DNA of 64,000 nt. It comes from Ariolimax columbianus (lineage: Eukaryota > Mollusca > Gastropoda > Stylommatophora > Arionidae). Positions within the stretch are counted from its first letter, which is position 1. Each line of letters starts with the position of its first letter. Below the pieces are notes generated by a model that was given only the letters and a program-made list of their open reading frames with translations, was not told where the DNA came from and did no database searches. The stretch is taken from assembly GCA_036924085.1 (NCBI GenBank), contig JAVGWX010000005.1, positions 96,276,730 through 96,340,729 on the forward strand, in the 5' to 3' direction. Shown here piece by piece: positions 3,411 to 63,560 of this stretch. The position numbers were made by a program, and so were the translations under genes.

Positions 3411-3630
3411 ACGCTCACTGCTACAGAAAATACGCTCACTGCTACAGAAAATACGCTCACTGCTACAGAAAATACAATCACTGCTACAGAAAATACGCTC
3501 ACTGCTACAGAAAATACGCTCACTGCTACAGAAAATACGCTCACTGCTACAGAAAATACGCTCACTGCTACAGAAAATACGCTCACTGCTACAGAAAATT
3601 CGCGCACTGCTACAGAAAATACAAACAACA
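3411..3630. repeat. 21-bp tandem array
   Basis: About ten copies of TCACTGCTACAGAAAATACGC. Because the unit is a multiple of three, frames on both strands stay open and give false repetitive peptides. It is one of four sub-arrays of a single evolving satellite. Confidence 0.95.
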
Positions 3631-3650
3631 CCCATCGCTTCATAAAACTC

Positions 3651-3835
3651 GCATTGCTGCATAAAACAGTTAACTAAATAAATCACTCATTGCTGCATAA
3701 AACAGTTAACTAAATAAATCACCCATTGCTGCATAAAACAGTTAACTAAATAAATCACTCATTGCTGCATAAAACAGTTAACTAAATAAATCACTCATTG
3801 CTGCATAAAACAGTTAACTAAATAAATCACTCATT
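3651..3835. repeat. 36-bp tandem array
   Basis: About five copies of a 36-bp unit that begins ATTGCTGCATAAAACAGTTA and ends AATAAATCACTC. The first half is the satellite core; the second half looks like an added spacer that was amplified with it. Confidence 0.95.
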
Positions 3836-4628
3836 GCTACGTAAAATGCACACTGCTTTGCCAAACACTCCTCGCTACATAAAACACTCATTGCCTCACG
3901 AAACACTCATTGCTACAAAAAACACTCATTGCTGCATAAAACACTTTCTGCTACACGATACATTCATCGCTGCAAAAAACATTCATTGCTACATAAAACA
4001 GGTATTGTTAAATAAAACATTCATAGCTACATAAAACAGGTATTGTTAAATAAAACATTCATAGCTACATAAAACACTCATTGCCGCACGAAACACTCAT
4101 TGCTACATAAAAGACATATTGCTATATAAAACGTCCATTGGTACATAAAACGCTAATTGCAATATAAAACACGTATTGCTACATAAAACACGTATTGCTA
4201 CATAAAGCGCCCATTGCTACATAAAACACGTATTACTACATAAAACGTCCATTGCTACATAAAACGCTAATTGCAACATAAAACACGTATTGCTACATAA
4301 AACACGTATTACTACATAAAACGCCCATTGCTACATAAAACGCCCATTGCTAAAAAAAACGCCCATTGCTACATACAACGCACATTGCTACATACAACGC
4401 CCATTGCAACATAAAACACGTATTGCTACATAAGACACGTATTGCTACATACAACGCCCATTGCTACATAAAACGCCCATTGTTACATAACACGCCCATT
4501 GTTACATAAAACGCCCATTGTTACATAAAACGCCCATTGTTACATAAAACGCCCATTGTTACATAAAACGCCCATTGTTACATACCACGCCCATTGTTAC
4601 ATAACACGCCCATTGTTACATAACACGC
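3836..4628. repeat. About 20-bp diverged tandem array
   Basis: Roughly forty variants of ATTGCTACATAAAACRCCC, with local homogenised runs such as a GTTACATAAAACGCCCATT stretch near 4480-4580. Variation between neighbours is higher than in the flanking sub-arrays. Confidence 0.93.
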
Positions 4629-5025
4629 CCATTGCTACATTGAAACACGCCCATTGCTACATTGAAACACGCCCATTGCTACATTGAAACACGCCCATTG
4701 CTACATTGAAACACGCCCATTGCTACATTGAAACACGCCCATTGCTACATTGAAACACGCCCATTGCTACATTGAAACACGCCCATTGCTACATTGAAAC
4801 ACGCCCATTGCTACATTGAAACACGCCCATTGCTACATTGAAACACGCCCATTGCTACATTGAAACACGCCCATTGCTACATTGAAACACGCCCATTGCT
4901 TCATTGAAACACGCCCATTGCTACATTGAAACACGCCCATTGCTACATTGAAACACGCCCATTGCTACATTGAAACACGCCCATTGCTACATTGAAACAC
5001 GCCCATTGCTACATTGAAACACTCA
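4629..5025. repeat. 22-bp homogeneous tandem array
   Basis: About 18 near-identical copies of ACGCCCATTGCTACATTGAA plus AC (22 bp). High identity implies that this is the youngest amplification of the satellite. Confidence 0.95.
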
Positions 5026-6659: not shown

Positions 6660-7592
6660 ATTATGGCGCATATTAGCAAACGAGAGAACTTTTACAGCAA
6701 TAATGGATTCCACAGTACCATATATGCGGAATGTATAATGAGAAATGTGCGAGAAGATGAGAACATTGAAAGTTTCAACCCATCTACGATTGGGGGGTAC
6801 GAGATTCCAGAGTTACGATACACAGATGACAGTGATACTATCAAAAAGCGCGGAAGGGCTAGAGCAGCTACTTTCAGCCATTAATGGACAAAGTAAAGAT
6901 CAAAATCTGTTCATAAACATAAACAAAACAAAGATAATGACCACCGATAAAAAACAATGTCAGCATAAATTTACAGTGGGTGGTGAGGAAATAGATCAGG
7001 TCACACATTTTGAATATCTGGGCTCCAGAATCAACAAAAATGGTGACTGCTCGAAAGAAATCAGAAGAAGACTAGCTATGGCAATGCAGAGACTGAACAG
7101 CCTGAAGAAATTATGGCAGGGCACCAACAAAATGATAAAAGTAAGTCTTGAGAGCCTGTGTTTTTCCTGTGGCAGCTTATGGTTGTGAAGCATGGACGAT
7201 TACCAAAACTTCTAGACAAAGAATCGAATCCTTCGAGTCAAAATGTTACAGAAAGATCCTCAGAATACCATGGACAGAGAAAAGAACAAATGTAGACATT
7301 CGGCAAAAGTTGAGCATAGAGGAGAACTGGTTTACCAATTCCATTTTGGCTAGAAAATGCAAATACTTTGGTCACATCAAGAGACACAACGGTCTTGAGA
7401 GGACGGTGATGGACGGTATGGTGCCAGGCAAAAGAGGAAGGGGTAGACCAAGAAGACGATGGCACAAAGATATCCAGGAAGGCGGAGTATGACTGTGGCG
7501 GAAGCTGGTGTTTTGGCAAGGGAACGAGTTTCTTTCAGACAGACTGTGATGGGAGCGACGTTCTACAAAGGACATGCTACATGAGAGAGACA
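6660..7592 (+). pseudogene. LINE RT fragment with degraded palm motif
   Basis: The frame pieces, in order: ECIMRNVRE...IGGYEIPELRYTDDSD (palm; the canonical YADDT has become YTDDS), SAEGLEQLLSAINGQ, NINKTKIMTTDK, VTHFEYLGSRINKNGDC, then AAYGCEAWTITKTSRQRI, KILRIPWTEKRTNVDI, FGHIKRHNGLERTVMDG and GKRGRGRPRRRW. At least two frameshifts occur (near 6840 and 7150). The last 440 bp are about 95% identical to 16938-17385, so the two fragments derive from one recently active family. Confidence 0.88.
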
Positions 7593-7663
7593 GTACCAAG
7601 TGTTCAGAAATACATTTATTTTCCTTGTTTTAATTTGTCATTGTCTTGAAGACGATTGTATGG

Positions 7664-10754: not shown

Positions 10755-11700
10755 GTAAAGAGGTCCTCCAGAAACTGGAAGGCAGGTTCGCCGAGTGGTG
10801 CAATCAGTTTAGGTTTACCCTAAACCTGGAAAAATACGAAGGTCTACGCACGGCGAATTAACACTCCCCCCTCAATAAAGATTGAGGGCGTCACTCTGGA
10901 GGTCGTCAACAGCTTCACTTTCGATTCTGCTATCAGCAACGCTTTGTCGCTCGAGATGGAGGTATACAATTTGTTTGGTGGGGAGAGCACCGTCATGTCC
11001 CGCCTGAAGAAGAGAGTCTGGGAAAACAATTTGCTGTTTCAATACACCAAGGCCCAGGTCTATCAGATCTGCGATCTTAGCACTCTCGTGTATAGATGCG
11101 AGACTTGGAGTACTTCCACTAAGCAGGAGCGGCGACTCAATACCGTTCACATACAGTGCCTGTGGCGTATAATCAGGATTGGGTGGCAAGAGTGAGTGCC
11201 ATATCATGTGAATTTACAGCGAGCAAACACTCACAGCATATACTTGCTGTTAAAGCAATGATGGGCTCGATCGTTGAGCCATTTTACCGATTACTGGAGA
11301 GGATGTTAAAGGACAGCTGACCAATGGAGCTAAAATAATCGGCCTTCCCGCACTGCAATTCAAGGACGTTAGCAACTGGGTCATGAGGTCATGCGACATC
11401 TAGTCCTAGGGCTGGTAAAGGAATACTCAGGATCGAGTTATTTGACAAAAATCAGTTGGGTGGAACATAGTGGCTGCTGGCACTCGTAGACGCCTTCTGC
11501 CTACAGAGAAAAGAGAATCAGGGAATACTCCGGCAAGTCAGCCACGTCAACGTGGTTGTACGATCTGTGACAGGAACTACCACTTGCAGGTGGGTCTTTA
11601 CAATCATGGCTAGACAGTGCCGAAATACAGGAGACAGAGCTGTACAAAACTCAAAAGGTGCCACGCACATGGTCTACATAGACTGAGACGCTAATAATGA
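10755..11700 (+). pseudogene. LINE RT C-terminal half with terminal finger-like motif
   Basis: Successive frames give the fingers-to-thumb region: LEGRFAEWC-like codons at about 10780, LEVVNSFTFDS, AISNALSLEMEVYN, SRLKKRVWENN, AQVYQICDLSTLVYRCETW, QERRLNTVHIQCLWRIIRI. Weaker matches run through to CTICDRNYHLQVGLYNHG near 11560-11610, the degenerate C2H2-like finger that ends this LINE type. Multiple stops. Same family type as 56505-57390 (minus). Confidence 0.82.
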
Positions 11701-15904: not shown

Positions 15905-16812
15905 CAGAAGATGGCATATTACGCATTTCACACCAACAGTCAATCAATCATTCAATCAATCGAGTGTCTTCTCCAGATTGAAGGTTCCATCGTAAAATGT
16001 GATCCTCCCACGCGTAGCTCTGCCTACCTTGTGCCCGTCTTCCGTCTAACCTACCCTCAACTATGGGTTTTTTTAAAGAGTGTCAAGTCTTTTTATGTTT
16101 CCAAAAGATATGATCTTGGGCTCTGTATGTCTGTCAACAGATCTCTGTTCATCTCTAGTTTCTCCAGAACCTCTACATCTGTTAGCTTCCTTGATGAAAT
16201 GCGACCCATTCTCCTGCACGTCCACATCTCCAGAGACACTAATCTACCTTCAAAATGCTTGTTCATTGTCCAAGTTTCCGCATTATATAGAAGTGTCTAC
16301 AAATCACTTGATCATTCTTATTTTGAAGTTGTAGCTAGCCTAGGTCTATAAATGTGAATATCGTCTTCATTCTATTGAATGTATCCTTGGCTATATCTAG
16401 TCTCTTGATTTGAGTTTCAGATTTATCATTACCGGTTATTAAATGCACACGACATGATAAACTTGTCCCCTGCTCCAACCACATCTCCGCTTTCTCTGAT
16501 GTACAATTTGGGCTTTTCCTTTATTCTTCTAATTATCACAGCTTTTTGTAAATTTTAATATATTTTTATTTAGACCACACTCTGCACTGCTCTTATTGAC
16601 TTGCTCAACAAGGTCTTGAAATTCCTATCACTGTCGCCAACAGTTCTGTATGTGTCATCAACATAACACAGATTGTTTATCACTCTTCCGTTCATATTTA
16701 GTCCAGACATTTCTCCGACTTGCCTGAAGGTTAAAGATGCAAGGTGACAATACACATCCCTACTGCATGCCTCGTTTTATAACAATGTTTGGTGAGAAGT
16801 TATTTTCTCCCA
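15905..16812 (-). pseudogene. LINE RT, palm to C-terminus (distal half)
   Basis: On the minus strand from 16812 downwards: GENNFSPNIVIKRG, then CVLSPCIFNLQ, a frameshift, GLNMNGRVINNLCYVDDT (palm catalytic motif, YVDD in place of YADD), RNFKTLL, and further on LYNAETWTMNKHFEGRL, LEMWTCRRMGRIS and TDVEVLEKLEMNRDLL (thumb/C-terminal region). It continues the N-terminal half at 17401-17765; the insertion at 16813-17389 separates them. Decayed but nearly collinear. Confidence 0.83.
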
Positions 16813-16937
16813 AAAAAATTGCAGCAATCAAATGTGAAAATAACTTCTCACCAAACATTGTTATAAAACGAGGCATGCAGTAGGGATGTGTATTGTCACC
16901 TTGCATCTTTAACCTTCAGGCAAGTCGGAGAAATGTC
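16706..16937. repeat. Perfect 102-bp inverted repeat with 28-bp spacer
   Basis: Positions 16706-16807 and 16836-16937 are exact reverse complements (each pair of positions sums to 33643). Mismatch begins one base inside and one base outside these limits. The left arm is part of the minus-strand LINE target. The right arm belongs to the 577-bp insertion and duplicates that target in reverse. Confidence 0.95.
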
Positions 16938-17389
16938 CATTAAACGTCTTGAGAGCCTGTGTTTTTCCTGTGGCAGCTTATGGCTGTGAAGCATGGACGA
17001 TTACCAAAACTTCTAGACAAAGAGTCGAATCCTTCGAGTCAAAATGTTTCAGAAAGATCCTCAGAATACCCTGGACAGAGAAAAGAACAAATGTAGACAT
17101 TCGGCAAGAGTTGAGTATAGAGGAGAACTGGTTTATCAATTCCATTTTGGCTAGAAAATGCAAATACTTTGGTCACATCAAGAGACACAACGGTCTTGAG
17201 AGGACGGTGATGGAAGGTATGGTGCCAGGCAAAAGAGGAAGGGGTAGACCAAGAAGACGATGGTACCAAAATATCCAGGAGTGCCTGAGTATGACAGTGG
17301 CGGAAGCTGGAGTTTTGGCAAGGGAACGAGTTTCTTTCAGACAGACTGTGATGGGAGCGACGTTCTACAAAGGACATGCTACATGAGAG
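16813..17389 (+). mobile_element. LINE-derived insertion with 11-bp TSD and inverted target copy
   Basis: ATTTTCTCCCA is present at 16802-16812 and 17390-17400. The insert has three parts: 23 bp of unknown origin, an exact inverted copy of the neighbouring target (16836-16937), and a 5'-truncated LINE 3' end (16938-17389). Joining the flanks with one TSD copy restores the minus-strand LINE frame (VLGENNFSPN). Confidence 0.85.
16938..17385 (+). pseudogene. LINE RT C-terminal fragment inside the insertion
   Basis: Nearly intact frame: CVFPVAAYGCEAWTITKTSR, CFRKILRIPWTEKRTNVDI, FGHIKRHNGLERTVMEG, GKRGRGRPRRRW, then LSMTVAEAGVLARERVSF, ending ATFYKGHAT. It lacks the palm and all upstream domains. 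About 95% identical to 7148-7592. The well-preserved frame suggests a fairly recent insertion. Confidence 0.88.
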
Positions 17390-17400
17390 ATTTTCTCCCA

Positions 17401-17765
17401 GCACAAGCTACTAATAAAGCTGATATAATTCACTTCGATGCCTATTTTCTGCAGACATGTAATTATATGTTAATTCTGCTATCTGTCAAACGCTTTTCTA
17501 TAGTTTATGAAGAATACCCAAATAACCTTTTGGTCTTCTATTTATTTTTCAGCAAACATTCTGACACAAAGTATGACTTCTCTGATGCCGTAGTTTTTTT
17601 TATTTTAACCAAACCGTCCTTCACCCACTTCTCTATCTATTTTATGTTTCATTCTTTCGTGTATTTATATAGTCGTTACAGTTCACTGTTTTAAAAGTTT
17701 GATTTGGTCAAGTCAATGAAAATATCTTTCCAGATCTCCGTGGATGCATCCCGTTGTGTATATGT
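17401..17765 (-). pseudogene. LINE RT fingers region (proximal half)
   Basis: The minus strand from 17765 reads IYTTGCIHGDLERYF, then a gap, HERMKHKIDREVGEGRFG, YGIREVILCVRMFAEK, FINYRKAFDR and LQKIGIEVNYISF. These are RT motifs 1-3 of the element continued at 16812-15905. Stops are present. Confidence 0.78.
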
Positions 17766-17829: not shown

Positions 17830-18165
17830 CGAGGAGACTGACGTCTAGTCAGGCAAAATATACTGATCAGACATTCTTAGTCAGGGTCAGGCACGTCACC
17901 ATCACGCAGATCTCCCTGGAAGCAGGATGTTTGTATGGCAGTCTGGCTAACGAGGTGGAAGATCGACGTGATCCGCTTAGTAGTGAACGAGATGCAGATG
18001 GAGTTAAGCATAGCACAACTGCCGGGAAACCTCGATCAACTTTCGTCAGCCCGATCGGGATGTGAGGAAAGCAACAGCAACCGGCCACCAAACGCTCTTT
18101 GGGGAGGGGGGAGGGAACACAGGATTATACGTACTCATTGTGAACATTCAACAACAAAAATACCC
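17830..18165 (+). mobile_element. Dispersed element with 37-bp motif, copy 1
   Basis: Starts near GGAGACTGACGTCTAGTCAG, carries about one 37-bp unit (ATACTGATCAGACATTCTTA...), then a body of about 270 bp (GGCAGTCTGGCTAACGAGG...GATCGACGTGATCCGC) and ends in CATTCAACAACAAAAA. Same order as 48480-48865 and 53270-55785. No coding potential or tRNA-like boxes seen. Confidence 0.72.
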
Positions 18166-18339: not shown

Positions 18340-18825
18340 TGAATTGGATTGTTACATTAACTATCACAAAATAGGCTGTGGTTGAAAAAGGATTGTTACA
18401 TTAACTATCACAAAGTGGGCTGTGGTTGAAAAAGGATTGTTACATTAACTATCACAAAGGGGGTTGTGGTTGATGAAGGATTGTTACATTAACTATCACA
18501 AAATAGGCTGTGGTTGATGACGGATTGTTACATTACCTATCACAAAGTGGGCTGTGGTTGATGAAGGATTGTTACATTAACTATCTCAAAGTGGGCTGTG
18601 GTTGATGAAGGATTGTTACATTAACTATCACAAAGTGGGCTGTGGTTGATGAAGGATTGTTACATTAACTATCACAAAGTGGGCTGTGGTTGATGAAGGA
18701 TTGTTACATTAACTATCACAAAGTGGGCTGTGGTTGATGAAGGATTGTTACATTAACTATCACAAAGTGGGCTGTGGTTGATGAAGGATTGTTACATTAA
18801 CTATCACAAAGTGGGCTGTGGTTGC
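18340..18825. repeat. 44-bp minisatellite, about 11 copies
   Basis: The unit contains GGATTGTTACATTAACTATC, ACAAAGTGGGC and TGTGGTTGATGAA. Proximal copies are more diverged (AAATAGGC, GTTGAAAAA) than distal ones. Confidence 0.95.
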
Positions 18826-21800: not shown

Positions 21801-21867
21801 CTAATATAGATGAACAATGTATGACAAGACATACGCAAGCAGAAAAAAAGTTCAAAATTATCAGGAC

Positions 21868-22330
21868 ATGCTTTTTCCAAAGTGCGACATATGGTTGTCA
21901 GACATGGACATTAACCAAATCAATTGCCACAACAGCAACAACAAAAAATAAAAAATAAAAGACCACATCTTTAAATATGAAATGTTACAAAACGATGTTG
22001 AAAATAGCATGGAAAGAAAAAGCACAAATGGAGAAAAATTGCAATCGTTGCATATAACATAAAATAGACTTTTACACAACATTAAAAGAAAGATTACATA
22101 TTTTGGTCACGTACAAAGATATAACAAAACATATAGTGTTATAATGGTGGTCACGGTTCTTGGAAAACATGGTCAACTCCAGCGAAGGTGGCATCGGGAC
22201 TTTACGGAAAGTCTTGGCATGTCTTTGTAAGACGCGGACCGATTCGCCATAAACCGTAATGTACACAAAACTGCCGCAGACAGAGACTACACTACGTTCA
22301 TGACATAATAGGTCACATGATGATGATGAA
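21868..22330 (+). pseudogene. Degraded LINE RT C-terminal fragment
   Basis: Readable blocks: FFQSATYGCQTWTLTKSI, LNMKCYKTMLKIAWKEKAQ, then KTAADRDYTTF at the end. They match in order the post-palm region seen at 7150-7592, but stops and indels are frequent, and an A-rich insertion lies near 21930-21960. Confidence 0.7.
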
Positions 22331-22499: not shown

Positions 22500-22925
22500 C
22501 GTTCTTCGTTCTTCGTTCTTCGTTCCTACTTATTAGTTTTTAGTAGAACCCGTTCTTAGTTAAACCTGTTATTAGTTCTTAGGTCTTAGATCTTACTTAT
22601 TAGTTTTTAGTAGAACCCGTTCTTAGTTAAACCTGTTATTAGTTCTTAGGTCTTAGTTCTTACTTATTAGTTTTTAGTAGAACCCGTTCTTAGTTAAACC
22701 TGTTATTAGTTCTTAGGTCTTAGTTCTTACTTATTAGTTTTTAGTAGAACCCGTTCTTAGTTAAACCCGTTATTAGTTCTTAGGTTTTAGTTCTTACTTA
22801 TTAGTTTTTAGTAGAACCCGTTCTTAGTTAAACCTGTTATTAGTTCTTAGGTCTTAGTTCTTACTTATTAGTTTTTAGTAGAACCCGTTCTTAGTTAAAC
22901 CTGTTATTAGTTCTTAAGTCTTAGT
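22500..22925. repeat. 67-bp minisatellite, about 6 copies
   Basis: The unit contains TTAGTTTTTAGTAGAACCCG, TTCTTAGTTAAACCTGTTAT and TAGTTCTTAGGTCTTAG. The array abuts the 3' end of the minus-strand LINE relic at 22930-23350 and may be derived from its 3' UTR. Confidence 0.95.
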
Positions 22926-22929
22926 TCTT

Positions 22930-34036: not shown

Positions 34037-34905
34037 GATGTTTGATACTTCTTCTTCTTCTTCGTACGCCGCCAGACGTCAACTTGTATTTGTTCGAAGA
34101 AAGCAGCTGTCATCCTGAGGCTGTCGACACTGCCATAGAGCTTGTCTAGTGTTGGCACTGGTGATGGCCACATGTGCTTTCTCTGGACCTCGTATGTTGG
34201 GCAATTTTGCAGCAGATGTTCAGCGGTCATTTTCCCTGTACCTCATTTGCATTCGCCAGTGCCACATATCTTCAGTTTATTGAATAGGTGGTACCCTATT
34301 CAACAAATTTAAGATAGGTGGAACCGACGAATGCCCGTGTGGTACCGGGAAAATGACCGCTGAACATCTGCTGCAGAACTGCCCGACATACGAGGATCAG
34401 AGAGAGCAGATGTGGCCATCACCAGTGGAATCACAAGACAAGCTCTATGGCAGTGTCGACAGCCTCAGGATGACCGCCGCTTTTTTCGAAAAAATATTAG
34501 TTACTGTCTGACTGCGTACAAAGAAGAAGAAGAAGAAGAAGAAGAAGAATAGGTGGTACCTCAGTCTGTTGTGGCCTGTGCGGAGTCTGAAGACCACGAC
34601 CTGCTCTCTTCTGTTCAACTGGTAATAGGCATCATTTTTTGTGTAGCCAGTATGCTCTGTTTCCAATTTGGCCATGTATCTGGCCCTAAGAAACCTTTTG
34701 AACTCTTCGTAGGTCACACTAGAATCTGGTTGTGGTAATCGTGTACCTTCTTTTGCCAGTCTGTCTGCCTGCTCGTTGCCATGAATGTTACAGTGGGATG
34801 GAACCCACTGTACCACTATTCTTTTTGGTGCGGACTCCTGGCATAGTTGAAAGAATACTGCTCTTAAATCATTACGTTCTGAATTTTTCTGGCGATGTTT
34901 GATAC
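34037..34905 (-). mobile_element. RNase H LINE (minus) with 12-bp TSD, host of a nested copy
   Basis: GATGTTTGATAC is present at 34037-34048 and 34894-34905. The element, read from 34893 down to 34049, gives VQWVPSHCNIHGNEQADRLA, TYEEFKRFLRARYMAKLETE, TGHNRLRYHL, [nested insert], FNKLKICGTGEC, KMTAEHLLQNCPTYEVQRKH and TAAFFEQIQVDV, then the GAA tail. It holds only the RNase H end and C-terminal domain (5'-truncated). It lies about 220 bp upstream of the reeler start codon on the same strand. Confidence 0.92.
34283..34560 (+). mobile_element. Nested RNase H LINE copy with 13-bp TSD
   Basis: AATAGGTGGTACC is present at 34283-34295 and 34548-34560. The 252-bp plus-strand insert reads TLFNKFKIGGTDECPCGTGK, MTAEHLLQNCPTYEDQ and MTAAFFEKI, followed by nine GAA units. 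It interrupts the minus-strand copy between LRYHL and FNKLK; joining with one TSD restores LRYHLFNKLK. Confidence 0.94.
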
Positions 34906-43322: not shown

Positions 43323-43682
43323 GATTGTTTCCTCTTTTCCTCTTACGGACGTGTAGAATACAATCAGCCAGTCAATCAGTCATTAAGTCATTCCGTCAGT
43401 TAGTTATCGATTGTTCTCGATTAGTTACAATTAATATTTTTTTAGTTTTTTTTAGTTTTTATTGCGCTGAACACATAAAGCTATGGGGCGGGGACAATGT
43501 AAAGTTTCTAAAAAAATTGAAATAGCTATAATCAGTTTATAAGAAAATATCACAGGTGGCAGAGTTATGTGAAGAATAATGTTATGATATCCCAAAACTT
43601 TTTTGTTACACATTTGAAACCATTTTTAGTCGAAAAATGCGATAATGAGTGTTCTGTAGCATCAGTTGAAGTTATGAGACAC

Positions 43683-44495
43683 CCCAAAACTGGTGCTTTC
43701 ACAAAAGATAAGCTTAGAGCCACCACAAAACTGGTGCTTTCACAAAAGATAAGCTTAGAGCCACCACAAAATTGGTGCTTTCACAAAAGATAAGCTTAGA
43801 GCCACCACAAAACTGGTGCTTTCACAAAAGATAAGCTTAGAGCCACCACAAAACTGGTGCTTTCACAAAAGATAAGCTTAGAGTCACAACAAAACTGGTG
43901 CTTTCACAAAAGATAAGCTTAGAGCCACCACAAAACTGGTGCTTTCACAAAAGACAAGCTTAGAGCCACCACAAAACTGGTGCTTTCATAAAAAATAAGC
44001 TTAGAGCCACCACAAAACTGGTGCTTTCACAAAAGATAAGCTTAGAGCCACAACAAAACTGGTGCTTTCACAAAAGATAAGCTTAGAGCCACAACAGAAC
44101 TGGTGCTTTCACAAAAGATAAGCTTAAGCCACAAAAAACTGGTGCTTTCACAAAAGATAAGCTTAGAGCCACAACAAAACTGGGGCTTTCACAAAAGATA
44201 AGCTTAGAGCCACCACAAAACTGGTGCTTTCACAAAGGATAAGCTTAGAGCCACAACAAAACTGGTGCTTTCACAAAAGATAAGCTTAGAGCCACAACAA
44301 AACTGGTGCTTTCACAAAAGATAAGCTTAGAGCCACAACAAAACTGGTGCTTTCACAAAAGATAAGCTTAGAGCCACAACAAAACTGGTGCTTTCACAAA
44401 AGATAAGCTTAGAGCCACAACAAAACTGGTGCTTTCACAAAAGATAAGCTTAGAGCCACAACAAAACTTGTGCTTTCACAAAAGATAAGCCTAGC
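43683..44495. repeat. 41-bp minisatellite, type A (about 20 copies)
   Basis: The unit contains GATAAGCTTAGAGCCACCAC, AAAACTGGTGC and TTTCACAAAA, with an AAGCTT (HindIII) site in nearly every unit. A CCACAAC variant alternates with CCACCAC. One type A unit is also found inside the type B array near 44600-44640. Confidence 0.96.
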
Positions 44496-45135
44496 GCCAC
44501 CACAAAACGGAAGCTTTCCAAAAGATAAGCCTAGCGCCACCACAAAACGGATGCTTTCCAAAAAGTATGCCTAGCGCCACCACAAAACGGATGCTTTCCA
44601 AAAGATAAGCTTAGAGCCACAACAAAACTGGTGCTTTCACAAAGGATAAGCCTAGCGCCACCACAAAACGGATGCTTTCCAAAAGATAAGCCTAGCGCCA
44701 CCACAAAACGGATGCTTTCCAAAAGATAAGCCTAGCGCCACCACACAACGGATGCTTTCCAAAAGATAAGCCTAGCGCCACCACAAAACGGATGCTTTCC
44801 AAAAGATAGGCCTAGCGCCACCACAAAACGCATGTTTTCCAAAAGATAAGCCTAGCGCCACCACACAACGGATGCTTTCCAAAAGATAAGCCTAGCGCCA
44901 CCACAAAACGGATGCTCTCCAAAAGATAAGCCAAGCGCCACCACAAAACGGATGCTTTCCAAAAGATAAGCCTAGCGCCACCACAAAACGGATGCTTTCC
45001 AAAAGATAAGCATAGCGCCACCACAAAACGGATGCTTTCCAAAAGATAAGCCTAGCGCCACCACAAAACGGATGCTTTCCAAAAGATAAGCCTAGCGCCA
45101 CCACAAAACGGATGCTTTCCAAAAGATAAGCCTAT
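44496..45135. repeat. 40-bp minisatellite, type B (about 16 copies)
   Basis: The unit contains GATAAGCCTAGCGCCACCAC, AAAACGGATGC and TTTCCAAAA. It differs from type A at fixed sites and by one base of length. Because 40 is not a multiple of three, the reverse ORFs rotate through all frames and are artefacts. Confidence 0.96.
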
Positions 45136-46939: not shown

Positions 46940-47600
46940 TTCTAATTTGTAAGATCTGAGATATCTGCTTTGACAGAAGTGTATCTCTAATGCTGTTAAA
47001 TGTATTGTTGGGCATTTTAATTCTTTTAATGATCGCCCTTTCGCATTTTCCATCAGATGAAATGAGATGGCCAAGGTATACATTACTTGACATTTGTTCC
47101 ACAATTTCTTCATTTATATGGTGAACACCATAGCTTTAACATTTTGATGTTGATTGCGAACCCATAATGTTGACTTTTGCTGGTTATCTCATTCATTACG
47201 TTCTGTACATGTACTGGATCCTCTGCTATTAACGTTGTATCATCAGCATATCTGATTTTATTGATGCTACGTTCTTCTATATTCAATCCAGGCATGTTAT
47301 CTATGTCTTTGAAAATATGTTCTGTGTGTACATTAAACAAGCAAGGGGAGAGCACACAACCCTATCAACCTCATTTGTTAATAGGTATACTAGGTGACGC
47401 CTCCTATCTAGTTCTCAAACACACTAATTGATCCCAATATAAGTTTGTGATACGTTTGATATCATTACCGTTCAGATTGATATCCTCCAGACATCTTATT
47501 AATTGTCCACGCGTCACGTTATCAAACGCTTAATGTAATCAATGAAGCAAGCATATACGTCCTTTTGCACCTCCATGTATTTTTCCACAAGCATGGAGAT
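46940..47600 (-). pseudogene. LINE RT core fragment with intact palm motif
   Basis: Minus strand: EKYMEVQKDVYACFIDYIKR, degenerate fingers, then CVLSPCLFNVHTEHIF, MPGLNIEERSINKIRYADDT (canonical palm YADD), LIAEDPVHVQNVMNEI, FAINI, then EEIVEQMSSNVYLGHLISSD and RAIIKRIKM. The order is correct from motif 3 to post-palm, with frameshifts near 47350 and 47110. Confidence 0.85.
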
Positions 47601-48479: not shown

Positions 48480-48865
48480 CCACTGATATTGATCGGACAG
48501 GTTAGTCAGGGTATGGCAAAACATACTGACAGATCATGTTTGTCAGGGTAAAGCAAAACATACTGATCAAACATGTTAGTCAGGGTAAGGTAAAAATATA
48601 ATGGCCAAGACCACCACCTCAGTTGACTGTTTTTATGGCAGCCTGGCTAACAAGGTCGGAGATCAACGTGGTACCCACACGTGTGAGCGACATGTAGATG
48701 CATCCAAGCACAGCACAACCGCCTGGTGGACCCCGGTTCACATTCATCAGGACGTTCGGTATGTGATGACAGTTACTGCAACCCGCCACAGAACGCCATT
48801 TTCATGGATCACAAAAGAGTAATCTAACTCATTGTGGGCATTCAACAACAACAACAACAATCACA
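48480..48865 (+). mobile_element. Dispersed element with 37-bp motif, copy 2
   Basis: Three 37-bp-type units (ATACTGATCAAACATGTTAG and variants) at 48490-48600, then the body GGCAGCCTGGCTAACAAGGT...CGACATGTAGATGCATCC... and the tail CATTCAACAACAACAACAA. An ORF of 73 aa spans the body but has no match in the other copies' frames. Confidence 0.78.
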
Positions 48866-53269: not shown

Positions 53270-55785
53270 CGTACATACTGGTCAGACATGTTAGTCAGGG
53301 TTAGGTATAACATACTGATCAGACATGTTAGTCATAGTTAGGTATAACATACTGATCAGACATGTTAGTCAGGGTTAGGTATAACATACTGATCAGACAT
53401 GTTAGTCAGGGTTAGGTATAACATACTGATCAGACATGTTAGTCAGAGTCAGGTATAACATACTGGTCAGACATGTTAGTCAGGGTTAGGTATAACATAC
53501 TGGTCAGACATGTTAGTCAGGGTCAGGTATAACATACTGATCAGACATGTTAGTCAGAGTTAGGTATAACATACTGGTCAGACATGTTAGTCAGAGTTAG
53601 GTATAACATACTGGTCAGACATGTTAGTCAGGGTTAGGTATAACATACTGATCAGACATGTTAGTCAGAGTTAGGTATAACATACTGGTCAGACATGTTA
53701 GTCAGGGTTAGGTATAACATACTGATCAGACATGTTAGTCAGAGTTAGGTATAACATACTGATCAGACATGTTAGTCAGGGTCAGGTATAACATACTGAT
53801 CAGACATGTTAGTCAGGGTCAGGTATAACATACTGATCAGACATGTTACTCAGGGTCAGGCACAATATACTGATCAGACATGTTAGTCAGGGTCAGGTAT
53901 AACATACTGATCAGACATGTTAGTCAGGGTTAGGTATAACATACTGATCAGACATTTTAGTCAGAGTCAGGTATAACATACTGATCAGATATGTTAGTCA
54001 GGGTCAGGTATAACATACTGATCAGACATGTTAGTCAGGCTCAGGTATAACATACTGATCAGACATGTTAGTCAGAGTCAGGTATAACATACTGATCAGA
54101 CATGTTAGTCAGGGTCAGGTATAACATACTGATCAGACATGTTAGTCAGGGTCAGGTATAACATACTGATCAGACATGTTAGTCAGGGTCAGGTATAACA
54201 TACTGATCAGACATGTTAGTCAGGGTTAGGTATAACATACTGATCAGACATGTTAGTCATAGTTAGGTATAACATACTGATCAGACATGTTAGTCAGGGT
54301 CAGGTATAATATACTGATCAGACATGTTAGTCAGGGTCAGGTATAACATACTGATCAGACATGCTAGTCAGGGTCAGGTATGACATACTGATGAGACATG
54401 TTAGTCAGGGTCAGGTATAACATACTGATCAGACATGTTACTCAGGGTCAGGCACAACATACTGATCAGACACGTTAGTCAGAGTTAGGTATAACATACT
54501 GATCGGATATGTTAGTCAGAGTTAGGTATAACATACTGATCAGACATGTTAGTCAGAGTTAGGTATAACATACTGATCAGACATGTTAGTCAGAGTTAGG
54601 AATAACATACTGATCAGACATGTTAGTCAGAATCAGGTATAATATACTGATCAGACATGTTAGTCAGAGTTAGGTATAACATACTGATCAGACATGTTAG
54701 TCAGAGTTAGGAATAACATACTGATCAGACATGTTAGTCAGAATCAGGTATAATATACTGATCAGACATGTTAGTCAGAGTTAGGTATAACATACTGATC
54801 AGACATATTAGTCAGGGTCAGGTATAACATACTGATCAGACATGTTAGTCAGGGTCAGGCACAACATACTGATCAGACATGTTAGTCAGAGTTAGGTATA
54901 ACATACTGATCAGACATGTTAGTCAGGGTCAGGTATAACATACTGATCAGACATGTTAGTCAGGGTCAGGTATAACATACTGATCAGACATGTTAGTCAG
55001 GGTCAGGTATAACATACTGATCAGACATGTTAGTCAGGGTTAGGTATAACATACTGATCAGACATGTTAGTCAGGGTCAGGTATAACATACTGATCAGAC
55101 ATGTTAGTCAGGGTCAGGTATAACATACTGATCAGACATGTTAGTCAGGGTCAGGTATAACATACTGATCAGACATGTTAGTCAGGGTCAGGTATAACAT
55201 TCTGATCAGACATGTTAGTCAGAGTTAGGTATAACATTCTGATCAGACATGTTAGTCAGAGTTAGGTATAACATACTGATCAGACATGTTAGTCAGAGTT
55301 AGGAATAACATACTGATCAGACATGTTAGTCAGAGTCAGGTATAATATACTGATCAGACATGTTAGTCAAGGTCAGGCACAACATACTGATCAGACATAT
55401 TAGTCAGGGTCAGGTATAACATACTGATCAGACATGTTAGTCAGGGTCAGGCACAACATACTGATCAGACATGTTAGTCAGAGTTAGGCAAAATATACTG
55501 GTCTAGACCCTTCACCTCAACTTCCATTTAGTCCTTCCTGGAAACGGGTTGTTTTCATTGCAGCCTGGTTGGCGACATGGATCGACGTGATCCCCGCAGT
55601 AATGAACGACACACAGATTAAGCCAAGCGTAGTACAACAGCCTAGAGGATACCGGTCTACCTTCATCAGCACGCTTGGGATGTAAGGAAAGGTACAGTAA
55701 CCTGCCACTAAATGTTCTTTTCAGTGCGCACAAAAAGAGTAATCCTAATTCATGTTGTGCATTCAATAACAACAAAACCCCATTT
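53270..55785 (+). mobile_element. Dispersed element copy 3 with a 60-unit 37-bp array
   Basis: About 60 copies of a 37-bp unit (ACATACTGATCAGACATGTT, AGTCAGGGTCAGGTATA) occupy 53270-55500. They are followed without a break by the same body as copies 1 and 2 (CTGGAAACGGGTTGTTTTCA, TGCAGCCTGGTTGGCGACAT, GATCGACGTGATCCCCGC) and a CATTCAATAACAACAAAA tail. Variants (GGTCAGG/AGTTAGG, GCACAACA/TATAACA, GAATAACA) recur in blocks, a sign of segmental amplification. Each unit holds TGATCA. Confidence 0.88.
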
Positions 55786-60769: not shown

Positions 60770-62040
60770 ATTGCTAACCTTCCCATCTCCGTCGTATCTC
60801 CCTCAGTCCAAGTATGATAACCTTCCCATCTCCGTCGTATCTCCCTCAGTCCAAGTATGCTAGCCTCCCCATATCCAGTGTGTCTCTCTCAGTGCAAGTA
60901 TGTTAGCCTCCCCATCTTCCTCATGTCTCCCACAGTCCAAGTATGTTAGGTCCCTCATCTCCATCCTACCTCCCTCAGCCCAAGTATATGTATTGCCAAC
61001 CTCTACATCTATATTCTATCACTCAGACCAAGTATATGTATTGTCAACTTCTCCATCTATATTCTCTCACTCAGCCCAAGTGTATGTATTGCCAACCTAT
61101 CCATCTATATCCTGTCTCACTCAGCTCAAGTATATGTTTTGTCAACCTCTCCATCTATATCCTGTCTCACTCAGCCCAAGTATATATTTTGTCAACCTGT
61201 CCATCTATATCCTGTTTCACTCAGCTCAAGTATATGTTTCGTCAACCTCTCCATCTATATTCTCTCACTCAGCCCAAGTATATGTTTTGTCAACCTCTCC
61301 ATCTATATTCTCTCACTCAGCCCAAGTATATGTTTTGTCAACCTCGCCATCTATATTCTCTCACTCAGCTCAAGTATATGTTTTGTCAACCTCTCAATCT
61401 ATATTCTCTCACTCAGCCCAACTATATGTTTTGTCAACCTGTCCATCTATATTCTGTCTCACTCAGCCCAAGTATATGTTTTGTCAACCTGTCCATCTAT
61501 ATCTTGTCTCACTCAGCCCAAGTATATGTTTTGTCAACCTGTCCATCTATATCCTGTCTCACTCAGCTCAAGTATATGTTTTGTCAACCTGTCCATCTAT
61601 ATCCTGTCTCACTCACCCCAAGTATATGTTTTGTCAACCTCTCAATCTATATTCTCTCACTCAGCCCAAGTATATGTTTTGTCAACCTGTCCATCTATAT
61701 CCTGTCTCACTCAGCTCAAGTATATGTTTTGTCAACCTCTCCATCTATATCCTGTCTCACTCAGCTCAAGTATATGTTTTGTCAACCTGTCCATCTATAT
61801 CCTGTCTCACTCAGCCCAAGCATATGTTTTGTCCACCTCTCCATCTATATCCTGTCTCCCTCAGCCTAAGTATATGTTTTGTCAACCTCTCCATCTATAT
61901 CCTGTCTCACTCAGCCCAAGTATATGTTTTGTCAACCTGTCCATCTATATCCTGTCTCACTCAGCCCAAGTATATGTTTTGTCAACCTGTCCATCTATAT
62001 CCTGTCTCACTCAGCCCAAGTATACGTATTGTTAGACTAC
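60770..62040. repeat. 50/47-bp minisatellite, about 26 copies
   Basis: The unit contains TCAACCTGTCCATCTATATC, CTGTCTCACTCAGCCCAAGT and ATATGTTTTG. A 47-bp variant (TATTCTCTCACTCAG) occurs in a block at 61240-61420. The unit has no stop in any plus frame, so 404-, 308- and 298-aa ORFs overlap; none is a gene. Confidence 0.96.
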
Positions 62041-62139: not shown

Positions 62140-63560
62140 AGAGGTATTGATTTTAGAACTTATTTTTATTCCGGTATCAGATGCGAGATATTAATTTTAG
62201 AGCTTTCTTTCATTCTTGTATCAGATACGCGGCATTGATTTTAGAACTTTCTTTTATTCCTGTAATTTATTTAACAGATTTTTTCTAGGTTTCTTTTTTT
62301 CCTGAATCAGACATCCGGTATTGTTCGTCTAGCTATCTTTTATTCCCGAATCAGAAATCAATAATTTTTCCTGTCTTTCTTCTATTCCTGAATCTGAAAT
62401 CCTGAATTATTCCTCTTGCTATCCTCTATTCCTGAAACAGAAATCCTGTATTCGTCCTGTGGCTATCTGTTATTCCTGAATCAGAAATCCTGAATTCTTC
62501 CTCTGGCTATCTGTTATTCCTGAATCAGAAATCCTTAATTCTTCCTCTGGCTATCTTTTATTCCCGAATCCGACATCCAGTATTCTTCCTTTAGCTATCT
62601 TTTATTTCTGAATCATAAATCCTGTATTCTTCGTATGGTTATATTTTATCCCTGAATCAGAAATCCTGAATTCTTCATCTGGCTATCTTCTTTTTCTGAA
62701 TCATAAATCCTGTATTCTTCGTATGGTTATATTTTATCCCTGAATCAGAAATCCTGAATTCTTCATCTGGCTATCTTCTTTTTCTGAATCATAAATCCTG
62801 TATTCTTCATATGGTTATATGTTATCCCTGAATCAGAAATCCTGAATTCTTCATCTGGCTATCTGTTATTCCTGAATCAGAAATCCTGAATTCTTCATCT
62901 GGCTATCTTCTTTTCCTGAATCAGACAACCTGTATTCTTACTGCGGATATATCTTTTATTCCTGAATCAGAAATCCTGAATTCTTCATCTGGCTATCTTC
63001 TTTTTCTGAATCATAAATCCTGTATTCTTCGTATGGTTATATTTTATCCCTGAATCAGAAATCCTGAATTCTTCATCTGGCTATCTTCTTTTTCTGAATC
63101 ATAAATCCTGTATTCTTCGTATGGTTATATGTTATCCCTGAATCAGAAATCCTGAATTCTTCCTCTGGCTATCTGTTATTCCTGAATCAGAAATCCTGAA
63201 TTCTTCATCTGGCTATCTGTTATTCCTGAATCAGAAATCCTGAATTCTTCATCTGGCTATCTTCTTTTCCTGAATCAGACAACCTGTATTCTTACTGCGG
63301 ATATATCTTTTATTCCTGAATCAGAAATAGTGTATTTTTCATCTGGCTATCGTTTATTCCTGAATCAGGCATCTCATATTTTTCCTTTAGCTATCTTGTA
63401 TTCCTGAATCAGGCATCTCGTATTTTGCCTTCAGCGATCATGTATTCCTGAATCAGACATTCGGTTTTCTTCCATTAGCTATTTTTTACTCCTTGATCAG
63501 ACATCTGATATTCTTCTTTTAATTAACTATCTTTTACTCCTCGATCAGACATACCAAAAT
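62140..63560. repeat. 44-bp minisatellite with higher-order structure, about 32 copies
   Basis: The unit contains TGAATCAGAAATCCTGAATT, CTTCMTCTGGCTATCTGTTA and TTCC. Dimers alternate with the variant TGAATCATAAATCCTGTATT at 62607-62830 and 62990-63130. An about 354-bp (8-unit) block recurs: the marker CAGACAACCTGTATTCTTAC is at 62922 and again at 63276. Edge copies are diverged. Confidence 0.94.

What the first reader, a model, noticed from the sequence alone, without database searches (positions are those of the whole stretch)
16706..17400. Retrotransposon insertion that copied its own target in reverse, making a perfect 102-bp palindrome
A 577-bp insert with an 11-bp TSD (ATTTTCTCCCA) contains an exact inverted copy of the adjacent host sequence 16706-16807 joined to a 5'-truncated LINE end of another family. 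Arms are identical although the host LINE is old. This fits template switching onto flanking DNA during target-primed reverse transcription and is distinct from ordinary twin priming, where the inverted part comes from the element itself.
Basis: partly seen in the sequence, partly recalled or inferred. Interest (0 to 1): 0.82.

Follow-up and report, generated by a model that had tools for sequence, protein, structure and literature searches.

The report
Jumping-gene insertion beside foldback target copy
A fragment of a jumping gene landed inside an older one and, while the insertion was being completed, the broken target end most likely folded back and was copied in reverse, leaving an unusual DNA palindrome made by steps that are individually known.

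Summary
The palindrome is real: perfect 102-bp arms (16706-16807, 16836-16937) inside a 577-bp insert (16813-17389) flanked by an exact 11-bp duplication, ATTTTCTCCCA (16802-16812, 17390-17400). The insert's right part is a 5'-truncated LINE (from about 16939). Its 3' end agrees, to within one AG unit, with a sister copy at 6721-7589, so target-primed reverse transcription is well supported.

They are the piece of the host LINE's reverse-transcriptase region that the left arm now lacks. With them the host shows the 24-residue spacing found in 28 of 29 scorable relatives, and scores above 998 of 1000 shuffles; two broader profiles discriminate less or not at all. The inverted copy was therefore 123 nt, began inside the duplication and had an 8-nt loop; the left arm lost 22 bp between ATTTTC repeats.

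Best reading: the target's 3' overhang, with added A's, snapped back on its own TTTT, copied 123 nt of flank, then switched to the LINE cDNA. Precedents exist for most steps. My paper searches found no description of the combination. The window's genome could not be searched, so recurrence is untested.

The parts
16080..16801 (-). Host LINE (older, broken), left of the insertion: rest of RT and C-terminal region, on the minus strand; approximate extent
   Evidence: translation; tblastn; alignments run past the arm (composite residues 2-147 to the profile, 1-149 to P0089)
16706..16807 (+). Left palindrome arm = host LINE sequence in its original place, lacking 22 bp at its inner end
16802..16812 (+). 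Left copy of the 11-bp target-site duplication ATTTTCTCCCA; its first six bases belong to the arm too
16808..16808 (.). Point at which the left arm lost 22 bp (ACATTTGATTGCTGCAATTTTC, or a shifted equivalent) between two ATTTTC repeats (inferred)
16813..16814 (+). Two A's that neither the target duplication nor the inverted copy explains (part of an A7 run 16812-16818)
16815..16937 (-). 123-nt inverted copy of the host flank; 16815-16835 keeps 21 nt now missing from the left arm
16938..16938 (+). One unassigned base (C) between inverted copy and LINE
   Evidence: inference from the residues of relatives before the VLRAC motif
16939..17389 (+). 3' end of the inserted LINE (LINE2), 5'-truncated, open for 148 codons, ending TGA GAG
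17390..17400 (+). Right copy of the target-site duplication
17401..17645 (-). Host LINE, right of the insertion: upstream RT part (AFDR ... LCW), approximate extent
6721..7589 (+). Sister copy of the inserted LINE (96% identical over the 445 bp they share), probable 9-bp duplication ACAGTACCA at 6712-6720 and 7590-7598; its end TGAGAGAG is one AG longer than the insert's TGAGAG

Best explanation
A LINE inserted into an older LINE by target-primed reverse transcription. After both strands were nicked, the left end of the target carried an 11-nt 3' overhang, ATTTTCTCCCA. A few A's were added to it, these paired with the TTTT inside the same overhang (4-bp stem, 8-nt loop), and the folded end copied 123 nt of the flanking strand. 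The new end then switched to the truncated LINE cDNA with no visible matching bases and completed the second strand. Later, or during the event, the palindrome lost 22 bp from one arm by slippage between two ATTTTC repeats. Shown from sequence: the insert, duplication, LINE 3' end, inverted copy, its start inside the duplication (to within a few bases of an A run). Strongly supported: the missing 22 bp. Inferred: which strand primed, whether the LINE enzyme or a host polymerase acted (I lean to the LINE enzyme), and the order of events.
For: Perfect arms and duplication. LINE 3' end shared, to within one AG, with a sister copy that has a probable 9-bp duplication of its own. Spacer is host RT sequence: 24-residue spacing as in 28 of the 29 relatives that have the motif (91 of the 120 listed could not be scored); 120.8 bits against 96.9-99.5 without it; 2 of 1000 shuffles and 1 of 1000 random 22-mers of the window score as high (the host's nine spacer residues were masked in the alignment used to collect the relatives). 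Assembling inferred target, snapback, LINE and 22-bp loss in order gives 1695 bases of the window exactly (a check of consistency, since the pieces come from the window). ATTTTC is the only direct repeat of 6 or more, at spacings of 10-49, in the inner 70 nt (1 of 1620 position pairs). Precedents: human ORF2p extends RNA hairpins and primers of 5-10 nt, adds untemplated bases and switches templates (PMC10830420 passages); polymerase theta does untemplated addition and snap-back (PMC4912351 passages); yeast breaks give foldback inversions of 2 to about 150 bp (PMC11724301 passages).
Against: One example only. Seven A's make the exact start of the copy ambiguous by a few bases. Two other profiles discriminate less: with the first relative set the length is favoured (67.8 against 52.2-55.8 bits) but 81 of 500 shuffles score as high, and Pfam RVT_1 gives slightly more without the spacer (34.8 against 33.1 bits). 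The A's must be added before the end can fold, and a 4-bp stem is short. Copying 123 nt needs strand displacement or resection, for which I saw no passage. The join at 16937/16939 shows no microhomology. Arm identity need not mean youth, since inverted arms can homogenise (PMC8604942 passages).
Confidence: 0.58

Rival explanations
1. The first-strand cDNA, after leaving the LINE RNA, switched onto the bottom strand of the left flank at about 16706 and copied towards the break.
For: Gives the same product. LINE enzymes jump templates, and a jump from the RNA to upstream target DNA is part of proposed models (passages of PMC6895275; PMC10830420).
Against: The bottom strand should end at the first nick, just before ATTTT, yet the copy contains AAAAT from inside the duplication, unless the T/A run arose by tailing. 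It needs a jump into duplex about 120 bp upstream. The published R2 model jumps to the top strand, which would not give an inverted copy.
Confidence: 0.18
2. Host repair made the inverted copy in another way than by priming on the 11-nt overhang: a resected target end folded back at a distance, or a hairpin-capped end was reopened, and was then joined to the LINE cDNA.
For: Foldback inversions at yeast breaks need Pol delta, and end joining for the far side (PMC11724301 passages); DSB-induced inverted duplications depend on Pol delta (PMC10622511 title and passages).
Against: Hard to tell apart by sequence. Most yeast foldbacks of that study were under 14 bp and used a 10-bp imperfect inverted repeat with a 41-nt loop, unlike here.
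Confidence: 0.14
3. The template was RNA: the reverse transcriptase jumped from LINE RNA to a transcript of the host LINE, from this locus or a copy, as in chimeric retrogenes.
For: LINE RNA-to-RNA jumps are documented (PMC2104539 passages). The inverted copy reads in sense orientation with the LINE part. No genome-wide search for a source copy was possible.
Against: The copy ends inside the target duplication, which a transcript gives no reason for, and it matches this broken copy 102 of 102. An inverted same-family pair elsewhere in the window has arms only 84.9% identical.
Confidence: 0.06
4. Assembly or foldback-read artefact, or chance.
For: Palindromes are typical of foldback reads (recalled); no reads were available.
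Against: The second arm runs into a LINE 3' end, then an exact 11-bp duplication and the rest of the host; a foldback read would not give that. An exact 102-bp arm is beyond chance (next exact one 39 nt).
Confidence: 0.04

Closest known systems
Foldback (snap-back) inversion at double-strand breaks in yeast (PMC11724301, PMC10622511; passages seen)
   Same: Inverted copy of break-adjacent sequence, started at inverted microhomology next to the break, size within 2 to about 150 bp, far end joined elsewhere
   Different: There a 10-bp imperfect inverted repeat with a 41-nt loop, here at most 4 bp after added A's with an 8-nt loop; here the break carries a LINE target-site duplication and the far end is joined to LINE cDNA
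Twin-primed 5'-inverted L1 (Ostertag and Kazazian, recalled; PMC2912911 and PMC12350158 passages)
   Same: Inversion at the 5' side of a LINE insertion with a target-site duplication, primed from the second target strand
   Different: The inverted part is host flank, not the element; it copies DNA, not the LINE RNA
LINE 5' junctions with extra or rearranged target sequence, such as R1/R2 (PMC2718515 passages)
   Same: Extra target-derived bases at the 5' junction, untemplated bases
   Different: The 16-27 nt target duplications there are not described as inverted; the word 'inverted' does not occur in that text
Chimeric retrogenes by template switching (PMC2104539 passages)
   Same: One insert, one duplication, joined sources
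   Different: The other sources there are RNAs; here it is the target's own flank
Inverted duplications as a class of human structural variants (PMC12350158 passages)
   Same: Inverted copies of local sequence are common (277 events outside mobile-element insertions, median 284 bp), mostly with 1-15 bp microhomology at breakpoints
   Different: Not tied to a LINE insertion in the passages seen

Membership tests
Target-primed LINE insertion | Exact target-site duplication around the insert | tested here: met
   11 bp
Target-primed LINE insertion | Element's true 3' terminus at one border | tested here: met
   Agrees to within one AG unit with the only close sister copy in the window, 6721-7589; two copies only
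Target-primed LINE insertion | Empty site in an allele or relative | not testable with these tools
   The genome search did not complete (14 attempts)
Twin-primed 5' inversion | Inverted segment derives from the inserted element itself | tested here: not met
   Inverted segment is host LINE, another family
Foldback inversion at a break | Inverted copy of sequence adjacent to the break | tested here: met
   123 nt, begins inside the duplication
Foldback inversion at a break | Inverted microhomology that lets the end prime on itself | tested here: inconclusive
   TTTT/AAAA with an 8-nt loop, but the A's must first be added
Foldback inversion at a break | Dependence on a DNA polymerase and end joining | not testable with these tools
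   needs experiment
RNA-to-RNA chimeric retrogene | A separate RNA source of the second part | tested here: inconclusive
   No other DNA copy of the host segment in the 64-kb window; genome not searchable

The most novel reading that the evidence does not exclude
The LINE's own reverse transcriptase tails the target overhang and self-primes on it, so palindromes of the target flank are a built-in by-product of second-strand synthesis in this LINE clade, usually lost or shortened afterwards by central deletion.
Probability: 0.25. Interest if true: 0.62.

Novelty: new variant of a known kind. Interest (0 to 1): 0.42.

Why it matters
The second half of LINE integration is still described as very poorly understood (PMC6895275 abstract). 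A natural insertion in which the second primer seems to have folded on its own overhang gives a concrete, searchable signature: an inverted copy of the upstream flank that begins inside the target duplication. It also links retrotransposition to palindrome formation, and shows in one locus a likely central deletion that turned a tight palindrome into a spaced inverted repeat.

Tried and rejected
Spacer as untemplated or foreign DNA: rejected, 21 of its 28 bases are host RT sequence. Other places in the window resembling the spacer: the closest has 5 edits over the 23 bases searched. Ordinary twin priming: rejected, because the inverted part is not the inserted element. Inverted duplication older than the LINE: disfavoured, because the target duplication encloses both.

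Searches that led nowhere or were weak: a protein search with a 158-residue host composite gave 11 candidates and no hit; searches with a window relative (58 hits) and with a masked alignment (1513 hits, only the best 120 listed and used) worked. My first spacing script found nothing in any of the 58 because of letter case; the second anchored on a different W; one search scored 25 of 58 (19 with 24, 4 with 23, 1 with 25, 1 with 27). Pfam found no domain in the LINE2 C-terminal part at E 0.001. Rows dropped: 91 of 120 relatives lacked the L[YHFC]W...G[CDS]xxS pattern and were not counted for spacing; all 120 were in the profile. The sister copy's 9-bp duplication is the longest of the four shared words of 8 or 9 bases listed, two of which are parts of it.

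Literature: ten searches were answered, two of them with no paper. Among the listings and the passages I opened, none describes a LINE insertion with an inverted copy of its target flank. No paper was read whole: PMC2837659 outline and abstract only; passages of PMC2912911, PMC11724301, PMC7617806, PMC2718515 (also outline), PMC8604942, PMC4912351, PMC6895275, PMC12350158, PMC10622511, PMC10830420, PMC2104539. Most subscription papers are not held, so this is weak evidence of novelty.

Full report
Observation. The window holds a perfect inverted repeat, arms 16706-16807 and 16836-16937. It is by far the longest exact inverted repeat of non-simple sequence in the window, the next exact one being 39 nt; an inexact pair with arms of about 245 bp exists at 34048-34535. 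An exact 11-bp direct repeat, ATTTTCTCCCA, lies at 16802-16812 and 17390-17400, giving an insert of 577 bp at 16813-17389.

The inserted LINE. From about 16939 to 17389 the insert reads as an open LINE C-terminal region of 148 codons ending in TGA GAG. A second copy in the window, 96% identical over the 445 bp they share, runs from 6721 to 7589 and has a probable 9-bp duplication of its own, ACAGTACCA, at 6712-6720 and 7590-7598. The alignment of the two copies ends right after ...CATGAGAGA; by its duplication the sister copy ends TGAGAGAG, one AG longer than the insert's TGAGAG. So the right border is very probably the element's real 3' terminus, which with the duplication indicates target-primed reverse transcription. 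The protein has no match at the host LINE's own C-terminal region with the threshold at E 1, so the two are different families.

The spacer. Of the 28 bases between the arms, 5 belong to the duplication, 2 are unexplained A's, and 21 look foreign but are not. Read in frame with the inverted arm they give KIAAIKCENNFSPNIVIKRG...GCVLSP, which fits the RT stretch of LINE relatives, for example LYWHQKAAIRIQGALSPYAEIKRGVRQGCVLSP in P0085. The right flank of the insertion ends in the preceding residues (...SLCW). Joining right flank, spacer and arm gives exactly 24 residues between W and GCVLSP. Of 120 listed relatives (best of 1513), 29 could be scored, 28 with 24 and 1 with 25. Against their profile the host with the spacer scores 120.8 bits and without it 96.9-99.5; 2 of 1000 shuffled and 1 of 1000 random window 22-mers in its place do as well. 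The host's nine spacer residues were masked in the query that collected the relatives. Against this, a profile from an earlier set of 58 relatives supported the length (67.8 against 52.2-55.8 bits) but not the letters (81 of 500 shuffles as high), and Pfam RVT_1 scored the shorter version slightly higher (34.8 against 33.1). I weigh the closer, masked set most.

What follows. The inverted copy is 16815-16937, 123 nt. Its inner end lies inside the target duplication: it contains AAAAT, the complement of the first five bases. The left arm in its original place lacks 22 bp, ACATTTGATTGCTGCAATTTTC, which is one copy of a 6-bp direct repeat ATTTTC plus what lay between the copies. This is the only direct repeat of 6 or more, at spacings of 10-49, in the inner 70 nt (1 of 1620 position pairs). 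Before the loss the arms were 123 bp with an 8-nt loop, CTCCCAAA. Taking the inferred target, adding duplication, two A's, inverted copy, one C and the LINE end, then removing the 22 bp, gives 1695 bases of the window letter for letter; since the pieces come from the window this shows consistency, not proof. The join of spacer and right flank uses a 5-nt overlap in an A/T run, so the start of the copy is uncertain by a few bases; the exact 24-residue spacing is the independent support for it.

Mechanism. In target-primed insertion staggered nicks on the two strands give the duplication (PMC7617806 passages); here they would leave the left flank with the 3' overhang ATTTTCTCCCA. If a few A's are added, they can pair with TTTT in the same overhang and prime copying of the flank. 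That yields, in order, left flank, duplication, A's, inverted flank, which is what is seen. The new end must then move to the LINE cDNA. Human ORF2p extends RNA hairpins and primers of 5-10 nt, adds untemplated bases and jumps templates (PMC10830420 passages). R2 polymerase adds untemplated bases before initiating from an unannealed primer (as stated in PMC2718515 passages). Polymerase theta combines untemplated addition with snap-back replication (PMC4912351 passages). Yeast breaks give foldback inversions of 2 to about 150 bp, most under 14 bp, through inverted microhomology next to the break (PMC11724301 passages). So the agent may be the LINE enzyme or a host polymerase; the sequence cannot decide. 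I saw no passage on strand displacement over such a length. A switch of the first-strand cDNA onto the left flank's bottom strand gives the same product, but that strand should have ended before ATTTT, so I rank it second. Copying an RNA of the host locus does not explain why the copy ends inside the duplication.

Later history. Loss of 22 bp beside the centre between short direct repeats widened the loop from 8 to 28 nt. Tight hairpins are targets of processing: yeast work notes that Mre11 processes hairpins with loops up to about 8 nt (PMC11724301 passage). That palindromes are often stabilised by asymmetric central deletion is recalled, not taken from a passage. The loss may also have happened during the insertion itself. 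The 102 of 102 identity suggests a recent event, but inverted arms can homogenise (PMC8604942 passages), so I give no age.

A contrast inside the window. At 34048-34893 a retrotransposon-like element (another copy at 1143-1734) is interrupted by a same-family 3' part in opposite orientation, with a (GAA)n tail and an apparent 14-bp duplication (and my reading of its sequence; no family search was made for it). There the arms are 84.9% identical. I take this as an ordinary same-family insertion in reverse, which shows how different the perfect arms of the present case are.

Limits. Single case, no reads, no empty allele; the genome search did not complete. Inverted duplications as such are common variants in humans (277 outside mobile-element insertions in one study, PMC12350158 passages). 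The literature searches found no report of the present combination, but the library lacks most subscription papers.

Noticed in passing
34048-34893, with 1143-1734: A second inverted structure: an element copy interrupted by an opposite-oriented 3' part of the same family (arms 84.9% identical), ending in a (GAA)n tail, with GGTACC (self-complementary) at the 5' junction and an apparent 14-bp duplication GAATAGGTGGTACC. The 5' truncation falls at about the same element position as the target site.
   Followed up: partly
53273-55508 and 17847-17894: A 37-nt satellite array of about 60 copies; a single unit-like match lies at 17847-17894, at the edge of a diverged dispersed repeat: 17853-18160 matches 48553-48854 (68%) and 17912-18100 matches 55534-55720 (73%).
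   Followed up: no
3411-5025, 18346-18824, 22501-22929, 43676-45131, 60956-62032, 62292-63516: Many minisatellite arrays, with units of about 19-67 nt, in 64 kb.
   Followed up: no
47215-47529 (minus), 21851-22257, 11058-11192: Further old, broken LINE fragments of related families.
   Followed up: partly
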